Source: Frigoriglobus tundricola (lineage in GTDB: Bacteria; Planctomycetota; Planctomycetia; Gemmatales; Gemmataceae). Taken from it: 64,000 nt of DNA. Position numbers and translations under genes: made by a program. The stretch spans positions 8,308,001-8,372,000 of the forward strand of contig NZ_CP053452.2 of the NCBI RefSeq assembly GCF_013128195.2. The letters run 5' to 3'. The stretch's first letter is position 1, and each line of letters opens with the position of its first letter. Positions 16,436 through 56,271 of the stretch are shown in pieces. The notes beneath the pieces were generated by a model that had not been told where the DNA came from, did not search any database, and saw only the letters and a program-made list of their open reading frames with translations.

Positions 16436-17062
16436 ATGACAACGTCCCACGACAGGAACGCAACAGCAGGGGTGGTACGGCGCGTCTCGCTGGCCGGGTG
16501 CCTGATGCTGGCCGGGGCGAGCCTGCTACTCGGTATCGACTCCGCGCGGACGTCCGCGCAGCCCCCGGCGCCAAAGGCCGAGCCGCCGGCCGCCAAGGCC
16601 CAGAAGGCGACCGGGATGCGGCTCAACCACGTCGACCTCGCCGTCCCCGACGTGAAGACGGACCGGGAGTTCTTCGAGAAGCACTTCGGGTTCAAGTGCC
16701 TCGTGACCGTCGGCGACGACCTCGCGGTGCTGACCGACGGCTCGGACTTCTCGCTGGTCCTGAGCGGCCCCGAGGTCGGGGCGGACGTGGAGAAGTTGCA
16801 GCGGGGCGGCAAGACGGACGCGAAAAACAAGGGGACGGGCACCGACGCCAAGAAGAAGATCGAGTACCCGGCCGGGTTCCACGTCGGGTTCCACCAGGAC
16901 AGCAAGGAGTCGGTGGACGCGATGTACAAGAAGCTCAAGGACGCCGGCGTCACCGTGGACCAACCGCAGGACTATCACGGGGCGTGGACGTTCTACGTGA
17001 AAGCGCCGGGCGGCTACTTCGTCGAGGTCTTCCACCAACCCCGGCGCGGGGGCGGACGGTAA
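16436..17062 (+). CDS. Exported VOC (glyoxalase-fold) protein
   Basis: 208 residues. The signal region VRRVSLAGCLMLAGASLLLG precedes a Pro/Ala linker, then one vicinal-oxygen-chelate domain (residues about 58-200): MRLNHVDLAVPDVKTDREFF, a His near the first strand, FHVGFHQDSKESVDAMYKKL and a terminal APGGYFVEVFHQP with Glu. Metal ligands His and Glu are in place. An enzyme or binding protein of the periplasm is inferred; the substrate is unknown. A GGAGG motif lies upstream of the ATG. Confidence 0.82.
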   Translation: MTTSHDRNATAGVVRRVSLAGCLMLAGASLLLGIDSARTSAQPPAPKAEPPAAKAQKATGMRLNHVDLAVPDVKTDREFFEKHFGFKCLVTVGDDLAVLTDGSDFSLVLSGPEVGADVEKLQRGGKTDAKNKGTGTDAKKKIEYPAGFHVGFHQDSKESVDAMYKKLKDAGVTVDQPQDYHGAWTFYVKAPGGYFVEVFHQPRRGGGR

Positions 17063-40917: not shown

Positions 40918-41853
40918 CTACACGACCGGACCCGTCAGGGGGGCCGGGCTGACGCACGGGTCTCGGTGCTTGACGAGGGTCACGCGGTTGCCGGTCGAGT
41001 TGTACCGCACCTCGTCCATGAACGCGCGCATCAGGACGACGCCGCGGCCGAGCGGGCGCTCCAGGTTGCTCGGGGCGGTCGGGTCCGGGAGGCCCGCCAC
41101 GTCGAACCCCCGCCCCTCGTCGGCGATCACGAACGTCGCCTCGAACGGCGTCAACTCGGCGGTCACGGACACCCGGCGGTCGCGGTACGGGGCCTCGCCG
41201 CGGCGCACCGCCACCGCCCGCTCGAACGCCCCGTCGTCGCCCAACTTGAGGTTCGAGCTGACTTCCAGGTTGCCGTGGTACACGGCGTTCAGGAGCGCCT
41301 CCTCCAGTGCGATCCCGGTCCGGGTCGCGCCGGTCGCGTCGCACAGTTCGAACGCGATCAGCTCCTCCCGGAGGACGTGCACCAGCGCGCTCACGAGCGC
41401 CGGGTCGTTCGTGAGGGTGTACTGCGACACCCGCTCGCTCAGGGCGCTCAGCACGCGGGCCCGGCGGTCGGCCGCCTGGGACACGGAGAGCACCTGCTCG
41501 ACCACCGCAACGAGTTCGGTCACGATCCGCGGTTTGGGCACGTAACTGGCCGCGCCGGCCCGGAGCGCGGCCACGGCGATCTGCTCGCTCCCCTGCCGGG
41601 TCATGAGGATCACCGGCACCCGGGGGAACCGCTCCCGCACCTGCTCGACCAGGGCCAGTCCGTTCAACCCGGGCATTTGGAGGTCCGTGACCACCGCGGC
41701 CGGGGCCGCGCGTGCGATCACGGCGAGCGCCTCGGCCCCGCCGGCGGCCTGGGCCACGCACCACCCCCCGTGCTTCTCAAGGACCCGCCGGACGACGGTG
41801 CGATCCACCGCCGAATCGTCAACAACAAGAATCGTGATGTCGCCGTCGTTCAT
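40918..41853 (-). CDS. Response regulator fused to an anti-sigma-type (RsbW/SpoIIAB-like) ATPase domain
   Basis: 311 residues. Receiver domain 1-125: ILVVDDSAVDR, phospho-acceptor Asp57 in AAVVTDLQMPGLNG, and Lys in SYVPKPRIVTELV. Then a helical linker, and a GHKL ATPase from about 165: N-box GIALEEALLNAVYHGNLE, G1 FVIADEGRGFD and G2 LGRGVVLMRAFMDEV. The combination suggests phosphorylation controls a partner-switching or kinase-like output. Asp57 and the ATP-site residues are intact. No cognate sensor kinase is adjacent. Confidence 0.9.
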   Translation of the reverse strand: MNDGDITILVVDDSAVDRTVVRRVLEKHGGWCVAQAAGGAEALAVIARAAPAAVVTDLQMPGLNGLALVEQVRERFPRVPVILMTRQGSEQIAVAALRAGAASYVPKPRIVTELVAVVEQVLSVSQAADRRARVLSALSERVSQYTLTNDPALVSALVHVLREELIAFELCDATGATRTGIALEEALLNAVYHGNLEVSSNLKLGDDGAFERAVAVRRGEAPYRDRRVSVTAELTPFEATFVIADEGRGFDVAGLPDPTAPSNLERPLGRGVVLMRAFMDEVRYNSTGNRVTLVKHRDPCVSPAPLTGPVV

Positions 41854-42779
41854 GAGCTGATATCCGTTAACTGATATGGATCAAGCGGCCCCAGTGGGGC
41901 GTTCGTTGAGCGCGGCGGTCGGCCGCTCGATCCGGTGCGCCAGAACTGCGGGCGCCGGGGTCACCGGCGGTGCCGGACGGATCGAGTACCGTTGCGGTCG
42001 TCCCGTCGGCACACCGGCCCCCTTGAGCCCTGTGCCGCCCGTTGCACCCCCGGTTCGTCTCCGGCCCGCGACCGCGCACCGGAGTTCGGGCCGTGCTCGA
42101 CGCCCGCCCGAGTCGCGCCCCAGAGAAGGGCCGTATCGGACAGCACCGCACGGTTCGCGGCGTTTACACGGGATAATAGTTCAACAATAAACAAATGGTC
42201 GGCGTGATGGGTGAATTACGTCGGCCGCACAATGTTACGCCCGGGGTACGAACGACATCGGGTCGCACGAGCGGGGTCGCAAACGAAGGCCGCCAGTCGG
42301 CCGGGCGTGACAGGGAGCTGGGCTCAGGCCCTGTTCTGCGTTTTCGCCGGGGATTTCGCGAGGAGCCATCTGCGACGGTCGGAGATGCTCCCGTCCCGGC
42401 GGGGCCGTATCTGCTGTCGCGGGTCCGTCGGGTCCGAATTGTGATTCCGTGCCGCAGCGAACGGGGCGCTGTGGCCGACGCCGGCGGGAACACCTCGCGG
42501 GTGTTGTTTCATTTCTGGCACCGCGCCACAACTGCCGACTGTTCCGGCACGAAAAAAGATGACGGTGTGAAGATCTCGTTTGTGCTCTCTTCTAAAAGTT
42601 AAACGGGGGTTGAAGGCGATAACCCTCGGCCTATCCTGTGCCACACAGGTCGCGTAACTGTCCGCGCGGCCCGACGCCGGCGAGGAATGACTCCTCGCCG
42701 GCGTCGCGCATTCCGGTCCTCGACCGACCCAGGCCCCGCAACAGTTCTGGCTCGCGCACCGGGTCGCGCGTGCCTCTGT
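41854..42779. other. Gene-poor stretch before the small-RNA candidate
   Basis: 926 bp without a supported gene. It holds the promoter side of the response-regulator gene, a perfect hairpin at 42672-42706 and unassigned AT-richer patches (for example 42170-42200). It may be a decayed part of an older integrated element. Confidence 0.45.
42672..42706. other. Perfect 15-bp hairpin
   Basis: CGACGCCGGCGAGGA pairs perfectly with its complement across a 5-nt loop (ATGAC). There is no U-tract on either side. It is about 75 bp upstream of the small-RNA candidate promoter. Confidence 0.7.
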
Positions 42780-42813
42780 TTGACTCGCGCCAGACTCTTG
42801 TTATGATGGGTAA

Positions 42814-42881
42814 GTCAAGTAGGTGCTCGGTACATCGGGCACCCGGCCAGCGGGTTTGGACAGTACCCGCTGGCCGTTTTT
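42814..42881 (+). ncRNA. Candidate small RNA with own promoter and terminator
   Basis: TTGACT (42780-42785) and TATGAT (42802-42807), 16 bp apart, make a strong sigma70-like promoter; transcription should start near 42814. The first hairpin is 42822-42843 (GGTGC/GCACC outer stem, TACA loop). The second is a classic terminator: CGGCCAGCGGGT (42844-42855) pairs perfectly with 42865-42876 and is followed by TTTTT (42877-42881). No coding frame or Shine-Dalgarno is found in the roughly 68-nt transcript and no gene follows for a riboswitch to control. Similarity to a known RNA family was not seen. Confidence 0.55.
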
Positions 42882-43039
42882 ATTTACCCACACCACATTT
42901 GCCGCTTCTGCCGGCCGCGACCACGGACCCGACCTCGATCCCACCGTGCGCACGATGCTAGGCCACCTGCGTCGTCCGGAGCGGGATCAACGCCTCGGGC
43001 ACCCGGCGGGTGCTGGCGATGGTCGGGAGGGACCGGTCG

Positions 43040-43125: not shown

Positions 43126-43368
43126 CTATCGGGTCGAGATCCACGACCGCCGCCCGGATCGCAGTTCAGCGAGGATACGTTCGAACTCGACTTTAGATTC
43201 GGGCGAGCCGAACTTGCCAAGGCCGACCCACTTGCCGTTGGCCCAGCAGCGTGCGAGGTCAGCGGACTTGTGGAGCTTGTAGGTGGGGACTTCGTTCTTG
43301 GGGCGGGCATATGCGGGGTCTCGGGGGCGTTTACGGAACCCTCCCGTAAACTCGGCCGTTTCGACCAC
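43126..43368 (-). pseudogene. Tyrosine-recombinase N-terminal fragment (left copy)
   Basis: Identical over its first 69 or so codons to the start of the recombinase at 56140: VVETAEFTGGFRKRPRDPAY, then LARCWANGKWVGLGKFGSPE and VEFERILAELRSG. Homology ends after RSG, where unrelated sequence reads to a stop at 43126. In this copy the reading frame at ELRSG is intact, unlike the right copy. It is a remnant of an earlier integrated element, not a working gene. Confidence 0.8.
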
Positions 43369-43474
43369 GGACCCCGGAATGTCCTGACGTGAGCGAACCG
43401 CTTGGATCTGCGTGATGTACGTCGAGTGGGCGTGGAGGGACTCGAACCCCCGACTTCCTCCTTGTAAGGGAGGC
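43162..43474. repeat. Left 313-bp direct repeat of the tRNA-Val element
   Basis: Identical base for base to 55934-56246. It spans the start of the recombinase gene and tRNA-Val nucleotides 26-73. Homology continues a few bases further left (CCCGGATCG) after a 2-bp indel. It marks the left end of the integrative element or a tandem duplication boundary. Confidence 0.95.
43427..43474 (-). pseudogene. tRNA-Val 3' fragment (attachment-site remnant)
   Basis: 48 bp identical to the anticodon arm, T arm and acceptor 3' strand of the tRNA-Val gene at 56199-56271 (tRNA positions 26-73). The D arm and 5' acceptor strand are missing and replaced by unrelated sequence from 43475. This is the standard footprint of integration into a tRNA 3' end. 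Confidence 0.9.
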
Positions 43475-43618: not shown

Positions 43619-45209
43619 GTAGCCGTTCACAGGTGAGACGTCGGCATATCAGCGAATTGATATGCCGACGCCGTGAGGGAATTCGGATTAGGCCGGGAGC
43701 AGTGTCGGTGCCGGCTCGCCATTGCGGTGTGCGCGGATGGCGTCGGTGAGGAATGCCAATACGTTGCGGTTCTGCCGGCGGCACGAGGCGAGGACCGTCA
43801 AGATGCGTTCCACGAATCGGCTCCCGCGTTCGCTGTCGGTCCCGAAGCTGGTTTTGCGCCAGCACACCGCGTGGCGCACCTCGCGCTCGGCCGCGTTGTT
43901 GGTCGGTTCCACACCGACGACCCGCGCGAACGTCCACAACGACGCCTCGACGGCCAACAGGTCGCCGCAGGTGGCGGCGGTCTTGGCGCAGCCGCACGCA
44001 GCCCCGGTTCGCAGGTGCTCGCCGATCTGGTGACGCAATTCGGGGACGTAGTTCGATCGGAATGTGGACCGCGCGAGGGTTCCGTCCCGGACCCGATACC
44101 AATGCTCGAACAAGGCGTCCGAACTCGCCAACAGAGCCGCACCGATCGCCGTCCCGGAACCGCCGCGGTCGATCATCGCCTGGAAATCGCGACGCAGGTG
44201 CGCCCAGCACAGCTGGCGCGTGTGCTTGGAAAGGTGCGTGTACACCGGATACCGGTCGGTCGTGTGGACGGCCGTCGAGCCCGCTCGCAGATCATCGAAG
44301 GCGCTTCGGCCCCGGGTCTTTCGGATCAGGAAGGCCACCACGAACGTGGTCACGGCCACCCACAACCAGGCCCGCTTGCGGCCTTGGGTCCAGCCGGTCT
44401 CGTCCACGTTGGCCGGTTGTCCGCGGGTGTAGATCAGGGCGTCCTCGGCCACCGGCTTCAACGCCTCCGCGGTTCGGTGCTGGAGCTTGCACACCATCGC
44501 CGGGCTCAGGGGCAGGCCGAACAGGTCGGCGAACAATTGGCTCGTGCCGCGCTTGCCCAGGCGGCACGAGCCGGTGAGCACCGCGGCCACCGCCTGAGCC
44601 CGGGGTCCGTATCCGGTCGCCGCCTCGGCCGGCACCGTCGCCGCGGTCGTCGTGCCGCAGTGCGGGCACCGGAGCCGGTGGCACCGATACTCGGTGACGT
44701 GAGGCGTGATGACGGGGATCTCGTGGACCTGATGAACGGCCGGTTGTGGGTCGTCCCCGGTCAACGGGTGCGCACAGTCCCGGCACGTGGACGGCTTAAG
44801 TGCCCGGATCTCATCGGGCGGCAGCAGGGTGCGTTCGGCTTTGGGGTGCCCCGGTTGCCCGCCTCGTCTCTTGCCCGAGGGCGGCTTGGGCGGGGCCGGT
44901 TTCACGTGCGGGGCGTCGGACGAAGGGGGCTTGGACGAGTTGGTGGAGTTCTGGTTGAGACGGGCCTCGAGTTCCGCGACGCGGGTGGTGAGCCCGGTGA
45001 CCTGGGCGGTGAGTTCGGCAATCGTGGCCTCAAGAATGCGGATATACGCCACGACCTGTGGGGGCAGGTCGCTCGGGAGTTCCGGCGGTTGAGGGACAGG
45101 CGTCATCGCGTCCGTTCAATTACGGAAGACGGGTATGTGAGGCAACCACTCACGGACCTCATGCAAAAAGCCCTGAAAAACGCAGGGCCAGTCTCCTGTG
45201 AACGGTTAC
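43619..45209 (-). mobile_element. IS66-family single-gene element (ISBst12-like)
   Basis: 1591 bp. Ends are GTAGCCGTTCACAGG at the left and the inverse of GTAACCGTTCACAGG at the right, and it is flanked by a perfect 8-bp target duplication TGCGGTAG (43611-43618 and 45210-45217), the IS66 family length. A 13-bp stem hairpin at 43639-43670 lies just past the transposase stop. The target region itself is rich in GCGGTAG and its complement. Confidence 0.9.
43688..45106 (-). CDS. IS66-family transposase (single-ORF type)
   Basis: 472 residues, apparently intact. N-terminal coiled coil (ATIAELTAQVTGLTTRVAEL), the linker NSSKPPSSDAP, basic GKRRGGQPGHP, a zinc-binding pair STCRDCAHPL and RCPHCGTTT, then the DDE core: ANVDETGWTQGRKRAWLWVA (Asp), TDRYPVY (Asp) and VEPTNNAAEREVRHAV with the catalytic Glu. 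No tnpA or tnpB partner lies within the element ends, as in the ISBst12 subgroup. Confidence 0.93.
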   Translation of the reverse strand: MTPVPQPPELPSDLPPQVVAYIRILEATIAELTAQVTGLTTRVAELEARLNQNSTNSSKPPSSDAPHVKPAPPKPPSGKRRGGQPGHPKAERTLLPPDEIRALKPSTCRDCAHPLTGDDPQPAVHQVHEIPVITPHVTEYRCHRLRCPHCGTTTAATVPAEAATGYGPRAQAVAAVLTGSCRLGKRGTSQLFADLFGLPLSPAMVCKLQHRTAEALKPVAEDALIYTRGQPANVDETGWTQGRKRAWLWVAVTTFVVAFLIRKTRGRSAFDDLRAGSTAVHTTDRYPVYTHLSKHTRQLCWAHLRRDFQAMIDRGGSGTAIGAALLASSDALFEHWYRVRDGTLARSTFRSNYVPELRHQIGEHLRTGAACGCAKTAATCGDLLAVEASLWTFARVVGVEPTNNAAEREVRHAVCWRKTSFGTDSERGSRFVERILTVLASCRRQNRNVLAFLTDAIRAHRNGEPAPTLLPA

Positions 45210-55058: not shown

Positions 55059-56140
55059 ACTTCTTCACTTCTTCGTTCTGTACCTTGGTCAGGCGGGCTT
55101 TCGACTTCTTCTGCGCCTCACCCTTCTTCCGCGCGAGGGCCGCGGGCAGCGGGAACGCTCGGTCGCACGCGCGGATGATCGCGTTGAGATACGCTTGCCG
55201 CTTGTACCGGTTCGTGAGTTTCACGCCGGGCTTCTCGACCGCGCGACGGGGGGGAGAACACGTAATCGGTCTCGTCATCGGGGAGGTATGCTTTGTGCAG
55301 TTCCTGCCCCTCGGGCCGGTCGCGATGACCCGCGACTTCCTTGTACTTGGTCTTGTGGTGGACCGGGCGGAAGAACCACACGTCTCCGCTCGTGTCGATG
55401 TTGCACTGACGAAGCGCGCACGCTTCACCCGGTCGGCAACCGGTGAATTGCTGGAACCGCACCAGTCCCGCGACCTGGCGGTTCAGTTGCGCCACCGTGG
55501 CATCGACCACTGCGGGGGGCCACCGGTGCGATCGGCTCTGACTCACGGGCTTCCGTGCGCCCTTCCTGTAGCCCCGTTACGGTAGTCAATGCGGTGTAGG
55601 TGGTGACGGGCACCAACTCGTTCGCGGCCGCCCACTTCCAGATACGTTTGATTTTTCCGATCCGGCTGTTGATGATGGTGCGGCAGATCCCGGCCTTCAC
55701 GAACTCCGAGCGAACGGTCTTAAGTGCGAGTGGGCCGAACTCCGCTGCGGCAGTGTGGCTGTACAGGCGGTGCAGGGGTCTCCCCGCCACCTTGAACTCC
55801 CCGGTCTGAGCGGAGGGGGTTCCGTCAGACCGGCGGTGAAAGTGCTGTTCGGCGTATTTCATGAACGCCACGAGCAGCTCATCCACTGTGACGCCGGGAG
55901 CAGCCTTGGTGGCGACTGGCGCCCCGGATCGCACAGTTCAGCGAGGATACGTTCGAACTCGACTTTAGATTCGGGCGAGCCGAACTTGCCAAGGCCGACC
56001 CACTTGCCGTTGGCCCAGCAGCGTGCGAGGTCAGCGGACTTGTGGAGCTTGTAGGTGGGGACTTCGTTCTTGGGGCGGGCATATGCGGGGTCTCGGGGGC
56101 GTTTACGGAACCCTCCCGTAAACTCGGCCGTTTCGACCAC
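55059..56140 (-). pseudogene. Tyrosine recombinase, N-terminal two thirds, frameshifted
   Basis: Start GTG at 56140 (VVETAEFTGGFRKRPRDPAY), directly beside tRNA-Val, reading into the element. It passes KAAPGVTVDELLVAFMKYAE, core-binding ICRTIINSRIGKIKRIWKWA, the catalytic Arg region FQQFTGCRPGEACALRQCNI, and VKLTNRYKRQAYLNAIIRAC up to the IS66 insertion at 55059. Three indels break the frame: 2 extra bases at about 55932-55935 (the left copy lacks them), +1 in a G6 run at 55514-55519 and +1 in a G7 run near 55248-55254. The last two are in homopolymers and could be sequencing errors. The C-terminal part is at 52262-52445. Confidence 0.85.
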
Positions 56141-56246
56141 GGACCCCGGAATGTCCTGACGTGAGCGAACCGCTTGGATCTGCGTGATGTACGTCGAGTG
56201 GGCGTGGAGGGACTCGAACCCCCGACTTCCTCCTTGTAAGGGAGGC
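55934..56246. repeat. Right 313-bp direct repeat of the tRNA-Val element
   Basis: Identical to 43162-43474; includes the recombinase start and tRNA-Val positions 26-73. See the left copy. Confidence 0.95.
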
Positions 56247-56271
56247 ACTCTAACCGCTGAGTTACACGCCC
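56199..56271 (-). tRNA. tRNA-Val (anticodon UAC)
   Basis: 73 nt, minus strand. Acceptor GGGCGTG pairs with CACGCCC, discriminator A, no encoded CCA. Anticodon stem CCTCC/GGAGG with loop CTTACAA, anticodon TAC. T loop TTCGAGT. All arms fold with one G-U in the T stem. The recombinase gene lies at its 3' side and a duplicated 3' fragment lies at 43427-43474, so it is the integration target. Confidence 0.95.

What the first reader, a model, noticed from the sequence alone, without database searches (positions are those of the whole stretch)
42780..42881. Candidate stand-alone small RNA with promoter, two hairpins and terminator
A near-consensus promoter (TTGACT-16-TATGAT), a 22-nt hairpin and a 12-bp perfect terminator with a U-tract fit in 102 bp with no frame or downstream gene. 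That is the layout of an independent small RNA of about 68 nt, in an otherwise empty region next to the integrative element.
Basis: partly seen in the sequence, partly recalled or inferred. Interest (0 to 1): 0.6.

Follow-up and report, generated by a model that had tools for sequence, protein, structure and literature searches.

The report
Lineage-specific candidate small RNA gene
A near-consensus promoter, a short hairpin and a strong terminator lie close together in an empty stretch of a Gemmata-type bacterium's genome, so a roughly 70-letter RNA is probably made there, but no other genome searched carries it and its job is unknown.

Summary
In detail: TTGACT-16-TATGAT with an extended -10 (42780-42807), an 8-bp hairpin (42822-42843), and a perfect 12-bp terminator stem followed by TTTTTATTT (42844-42885), with no credible gene. 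The promoter is the only exact TTGAC-N14-TGNTATNAT in the 9.86-Mb genome. In random sequence of the same composition, promoter plus strong terminator at this spacing is expected about 8e-5 times per window of this size. An RNA of about 65-71 nt is therefore likely, but not shown. It has no Rfam match. BLASTN (own genome plus 59 relatives) and a covariance model (95 family and 39 class-wide genomes) found no homolog; the weak hits are bare terminators. It sits on the variable side of a tRNA-Val integration site and the nearest relatives are distant, so missing conservation is weak evidence against function. Verdict: probable lineage-specific sRNA gene, of a known kind, with low to moderate interest. 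A genome-wide search for the same layout gave something better, outside the window: a multicopy sRNA-like family with a near-constant AAUGGGCGA loop and strong covariation, found in 42 of 102 genomes of the order, without an Rfam match. The unit here is not a member. A conserved leader before deoxyhypusine synthase also appeared.

The parts
42780..42807 (+). sigma-70-type promoter, TTGACT-16-TATGAT with extended -10 (TGT)
   Evidence: only exact TTGAC-N14-TGNTATNAT in the 9.86-Mb genome
42813..42884 (+). predicted small RNA, about 65-71 nt (start inferred 6-7 nt after the -10; end in the T-run)
   Evidence: inferred from promoter and terminator; fold -40.8 kcal/mol, z -6.6
42822..42843 (+). 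hairpin 1, 8 bp, 6-nt loop GUACAU
42844..42885 (+). intrinsic terminator: 12-bp perfect stem, 9-nt loop UUGGACAGU, then TTTTTATTT
   Evidence: one of the strongest stem-plus-T-run sites in the window
42669..42709 (.). separate near-perfect palindrome (stem about 15 bp, no T-run) upstream of the promoter; not part of the RNA, role unknown
43144..43474 (-). context: left copy of the element-flanking direct repeat (3' part of tRNA-Val(TAC) plus integrase-like N-terminal remnant)
   Evidence: 98.5% identical to 55913-56246
40918..41853 (-). context: neighbouring gene transcribed away from the unit, response-regulator plus HATPase_c_2 protein
   Evidence: Pfam

Best explanation
It is a small stand-alone RNA gene. 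The housekeeping sigma factor starts transcription about 6-7 nt after TATGAT, and RNA polymerase stops about 70 nt later at the 12-bp hairpin and U-tract. This leaves an RNA with a short single-stranded 5' end (AGUCAAGUA), a small hairpin and a stable terminator hairpin. Its most likely action is base-pairing through the 5' end or the loops with one or a few mRNAs in this lineage. Shown: the promoter and terminator sequences, their joint improbability, the absence of a credible gene, and the absence of homologs in what was searched. Inferred: that it is transcribed. Not shown: any target or function.
For: Near-consensus extended -10 promoter, unique in the genome; exact and one-mismatch matches to the same pattern (9 against 1 in the reversed control) mostly lie just upstream of apparent gene starts, so the pattern means something in this organism. 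Strong terminator at the right spacing, composite improbable by chance. Genome-wide, the promoter plus T-run pattern occurs 5 times against 0 in the control, and two of those five are members of a clearly conserved, covarying RNA family, so this layout marks real RNA genes here. No coding signal; no credible downstream gene on the strand.
Against: No homolog in the own genome, in 59 relatives by BLASTN, or in 95 family and 39 class-wide genomes by covariance model; none in plasmids, phages, genome contigs or viral contigs; no Rfam match. No covariation test is possible with one sequence. No expression data. It lies in lineage-specific DNA next to a mobile element, where relics are common.
Confidence: 0.6

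Rival explanations
1. A relic: the promoter and terminator (attenuator) leader of a gene that once lay downstream and was lost when the tRNA-Val site was invaded or rearranged. The RNA may still be made but does nothing.
For: It lies 260 bp from the truncated integrase-like repeat (43144-43474) on the variable side of tRNA-Val: the other side (56.2-57.8 kb) is conserved in the genus genomes compared, while the 42-43 kb side has no counterpart beside tRNA-Val in any of them. A comparable promoter, structured leader and terminator does sit before deoxyhypusine synthase in this genome.
Against: No recognisable remnant of a coding gene directly downstream on the + strand. The 12-bp stem offers no obvious competing antiterminator; minimum-energy fold and centroid agree.
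Confidence: 0.22
2. No functional unit: promoter-like and terminator-like sequence that happen to lie together and are not used.
For: No conservation; promoter-like matches of 9-10/12 do arise by chance (2 found, 0.9 expected in 14 kb).
Against: The composite is expected about 8e-5 times per 64 kb on both strands and about 0.01 times per genome; the exact extended promoter is unique in the genome.
Confidence: 0.13
3. A diverged member of the AAUGGGCGA-loop RNA family that is multicopy in this genome and genus.
For: Similar size, own promoter, terminal hairpin with a 9-nt loop.
Against: Best model score is 10.1 bits and covers only the outer stem and U-tail, against 24-99 bits for members. The loop UUGGACAGU lacks the near-constant AAUGGGCGA, and there are two separate hairpins instead of one interrupted hairpin.
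Confidence: 0.02
4. Element-borne control RNA (plasmid-like antisense RNA or toxin-antitoxin antisense) left by the integrated element.
For: Short, stable, own promoter, beside an integrative element.
Against: No credible opposite-strand gene overlaps it; no match in the plasmid or phage collections; it lies outside the repeat-bounded element.
Confidence: 0.03

Closest known systems
Stand-alone intergenic trans-acting sRNAs of bacteria with an intrinsic terminator, of the kind that genome-wide predictors search for (for example PMC2527527, listed, not read in full)
   Same: Intergenic, own sigma-70 promoter, 50-150 nt, structured, ends in an intrinsic terminator.
   Different: No known target, no conserved seed, no expression data, no homolog.
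AAUGGGCGA-loop RNA family of the Gemmata group
   Same: Promoter directly upstream, short length, terminal hairpin with T-run, same genome.
   Different: The focal RNA lacks the near-constant loop, the two-part interrupted stem and any sequence similarity; it is single-copy and found only in this genome.
Attenuator-type leaders (for example the candidate leader before deoxyhypusine synthase at G000:C1:9109110)
   Same: Promoter, structured RNA, intrinsic terminator within about 115 nt.
   Different: No credible gene follows the focal terminator on its strand, and no alternative fold is evident.

Membership tests
Stand-alone intergenic small RNA gene | own promoter | tested here: met
   TTGACT-16-TATGAT, extended -10, unique exact match in the genome; by sequence only
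Stand-alone intergenic small RNA gene | own transcription terminator | tested here: met
   12-bp perfect stem and TTTTTATTT; by sequence only
Stand-alone intergenic small RNA gene | no coding frame and no downstream gene | tested here: met
Stand-alone intergenic small RNA gene | conservation or covariation in relatives | tested here: not met
   supporting rather than strictly required, and no close relative is held
Stand-alone intergenic small RNA gene | a discrete transcript | not testable with these tools
   needs RNA-seq or northern blot
Any Rfam 15 family | gathering-score match | tested here: not met
   (nothing overlaps the unit except a 14-bit chance match on the other strand)
   loop is UUGGACAGU
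   10.1 bits, U-tail and outer stem only
Attenuator leader of a downstream gene | gene on the same strand after the terminator | tested here: not met

The most novel reading that the evidence does not exclude
A newly arisen, lineage-specific regulatory RNA gene at a tRNA-Val integration hotspot of a Gemmata-type planctomycete, pairing with chromosomal mRNAs through its 5' tail or loops.
Probability: 0.2. Interest if true: 0.4.

Novelty: new member of a known kind. Interest (0 to 1): 0.3.

Why it matters
Searches of the paper library found no study of small RNAs in Gemmata-type planctomycetes. If transcribed, this would be an sRNA gene proposed there with a clear promoter and terminator. By itself it is ordinary. 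The genome-wide search it prompted matters more: it exposed a multicopy RNA family, strongly supported by covariation, across the Gemmata group, and a conserved leader before deoxyhypusine synthase, neither with an Rfam match.

Tried and rejected
BLASTN hits of the promoter half in G008, G010 and G013 share TTTGACTCGCGCC by chance; the surrounding sequence continues as ordinary, apparently coding sequence with no promoter or RNA. Covariance hits to R1 in G011, G076, G018 and others match mainly the terminator stem; hairpin 1 is missing or replaced and no comparable promoter was found upstream. Synteny by the response-regulator gene: the best relative (66% identity, G013) shares only that gene. 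Pxr (23 bits, gathering 80) at 42601-42713 is a chance hairpin match upstream of the unit. A 19/20 complementarity to window 16488-16507, near the start of an ORF at 16436-17062, uses residues buried in both stems and has E 0.19 genome-wide: not claimed as a target. My first count of pairs in the side family was out of register and was redone. The first composite scan excluded the focal stem through a loop limit and was corrected.

Full report
Observation. The promoter TTGACT-16-TATGAT (42780-42807) carries a TGT before the -10. Hairpin 1 is 42822-42843. The terminator stem pairs 42844-42855 with 42865-42876 and is followed by TTTTTATTT. RNA folding gives the two hairpins back to back at -40.8 kcal/mol, with no shuffle folding as well. 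In this GC-rich window, however, about 1% of 72-nt stretches fold that well, so folding energy alone is not evidence. The combination is. One promoter-terminator composite of this quality occurs in 64 kb and none in 36 Mb of simulated sequence; the product expectation, with the composition of the intergenic region, is about 0.0006 per Mb per strand. That is about 8e-5 per window and 0.01 per genome. The exact extended-promoter pattern occurs once in 9.86 Mb; eight further one-mismatch matches, most of them just upstream of apparent gene starts, compare with one match for the reversed pattern.

Surroundings. The unit lies in a gap between a response-regulator/HATPase gene transcribed away from it (40918-41853, minus) and an integrative element. 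The element is bounded by a repeat: 43144-43474 matches 55913-56246 at 98.5%, and holds the 3' part of tRNA-Val(TAC) plus the N-terminal part of an integrase-like frame (recognised by eye; no Pfam match). The intact tRNA is at 56198-56271. In the genus genomes compared, the sequence on the 5' side of this tRNA is conserved, while the other side, where the unit lies, has no counterpart there. The unit is outside the repeat-bounded element but in lineage-specific DNA. Overlapping frames lack the codon-position bias of real genes, and the nearest gene on the far side is an IS66 transposase on the opposite strand (43688-45106).

Conservation. BLASTN against the own genome and 59 relatives gave only short chance matches. 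A covariance model of the unit, searched in the own genome, 95 family genomes and 39 class-wide genomes (overlapping sets), found only itself and bare terminators. Plasmid, phage, genome and viral collections gave nothing (the genome and viral scans were exact-pattern searches). Rfam gave nothing. Since the best ortholog of the neighbouring gene in the genus is only 66% identical and not syntenic, a rapidly evolving or recently acquired sRNA would not be expected in these genomes. The result is negative but weak.

Interpretation. The most likely reading is a genuine short transcription unit with no conserved partner: a lineage-specific sRNA gene (0.6). A relic leader is the main rival (0.22). 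The base-pairing mechanism is inferred from the general behaviour of such RNAs; no target was established.

Following the layout through the genome. The pattern TTGAC-N16-18-TANNAT-N50-80-TTTTT occurs five times in the own genome and not at all in the reversed control. Across the 19 genus genomes there are about 23 distinct places, against at most 8 for the control. Two of the five own-genome hits proved homologous to each other. A model built from them found about 59 copies in 17 of 19 genus genomes and matches in 42 of 102 genomes of the order, in 17 genera. Copy number reaches 12-13 in one genome; the own genome has 6-7. Across 35 distinct inner stems the loop is AAUGGGCGA in 28, and the stem changes freely while staying paired. 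On the model alignment 17 of 19 pairs show changes on both sides; the covariation score is 0.51 against 0.20 in shuffles and 0.03-0.10 when the partner is slid (the alignment is fitted to the model and includes a few opposite-strand matches of the same hairpins). Many copies have a recognisable promoter directly upstream: scores of 9-10/12 in 19 of 59, against 2 of 59 for shuffled upstreams. One subfamily (stem GUCCCGCCGG) was found at most once per genome, and in the loci compared it lies beside the same metallophosphoesterase gene, in some also beside a DUF2461 gene. Rfam has no match at one tested copy. The focal unit is not a member.

The same scan also recovered a leader of about 75 nt, with promoter and terminator, before a deoxyhypusine synthase gene (PF01916, E 5e-87) in the own genome. 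The leader itself is conserved in four other genus genomes. It has no Rfam match. Its structure is supported by conservation but not yet by covariation.

Noticed in passing
G000:C1:292471-292545 (-), 1101494-1101568 (+), 4085579-4085652 (+), 6384637-6384711 (-), 8592089-8592161 (+), 9343719-9343793 (-), weak 5609670 (+); relatives L164-L219: Multicopy sRNA-like family: one interrupted hairpin with near-constant loop AAUGGGCGA, strongly covarying stems, T-run, promoters upstream of many copies; in 42 of 102 genomes of the order, no Rfam match. Function unknown; the constant loop points to one shared partner.
   Followed up: partly
G000:C1:9109110 (L066:1501-1610); L103, L104, L105, L108: Conserved promoter, structured leader and terminator; in the own genome it precedes a deoxyhypusine synthase gene (PF01916). 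Possible attenuator or metabolite-sensing leader, no Rfam match.
   Followed up: partly
window 43144-43474 and 55913-56246: 331-334-bp direct repeat (98.5%) of tRNA-Val 3' end plus integrase-like remnant bounds the element; longer than a usual att core, suggesting tandem elements with one mostly deleted.
   Followed up: partly
window 42669-42709: Near-perfect palindrome GACGCCGGCGAGGA..TCCTCGCCGGCGTC with no T-run, about 70 bp upstream of the promoter; a weak TTGAAG-TATCCT pair lies before it.
   Followed up: no
window 42807-42813 and 42884-42890: A 7-bp outer inverted repeat TGGGTAA/TTACCCA encloses the whole predicted RNA; may be chance.
   Followed up: no
L110, L118, L123-L126 (G006): Promoter plus terminator-like pattern found six times in one relative, several with the similar sequence GCGCCGCGTGCCGG..AGGG.CTTTCG; possibly another repeated RNA family.
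   Followed up: no
L112 (G016) and L116 (G007): A promoter plus T-run unit (GCCGGTGGGTCG..TTGCCCCGTCCGG) is shared by two genus relatives.
   Followed up: no
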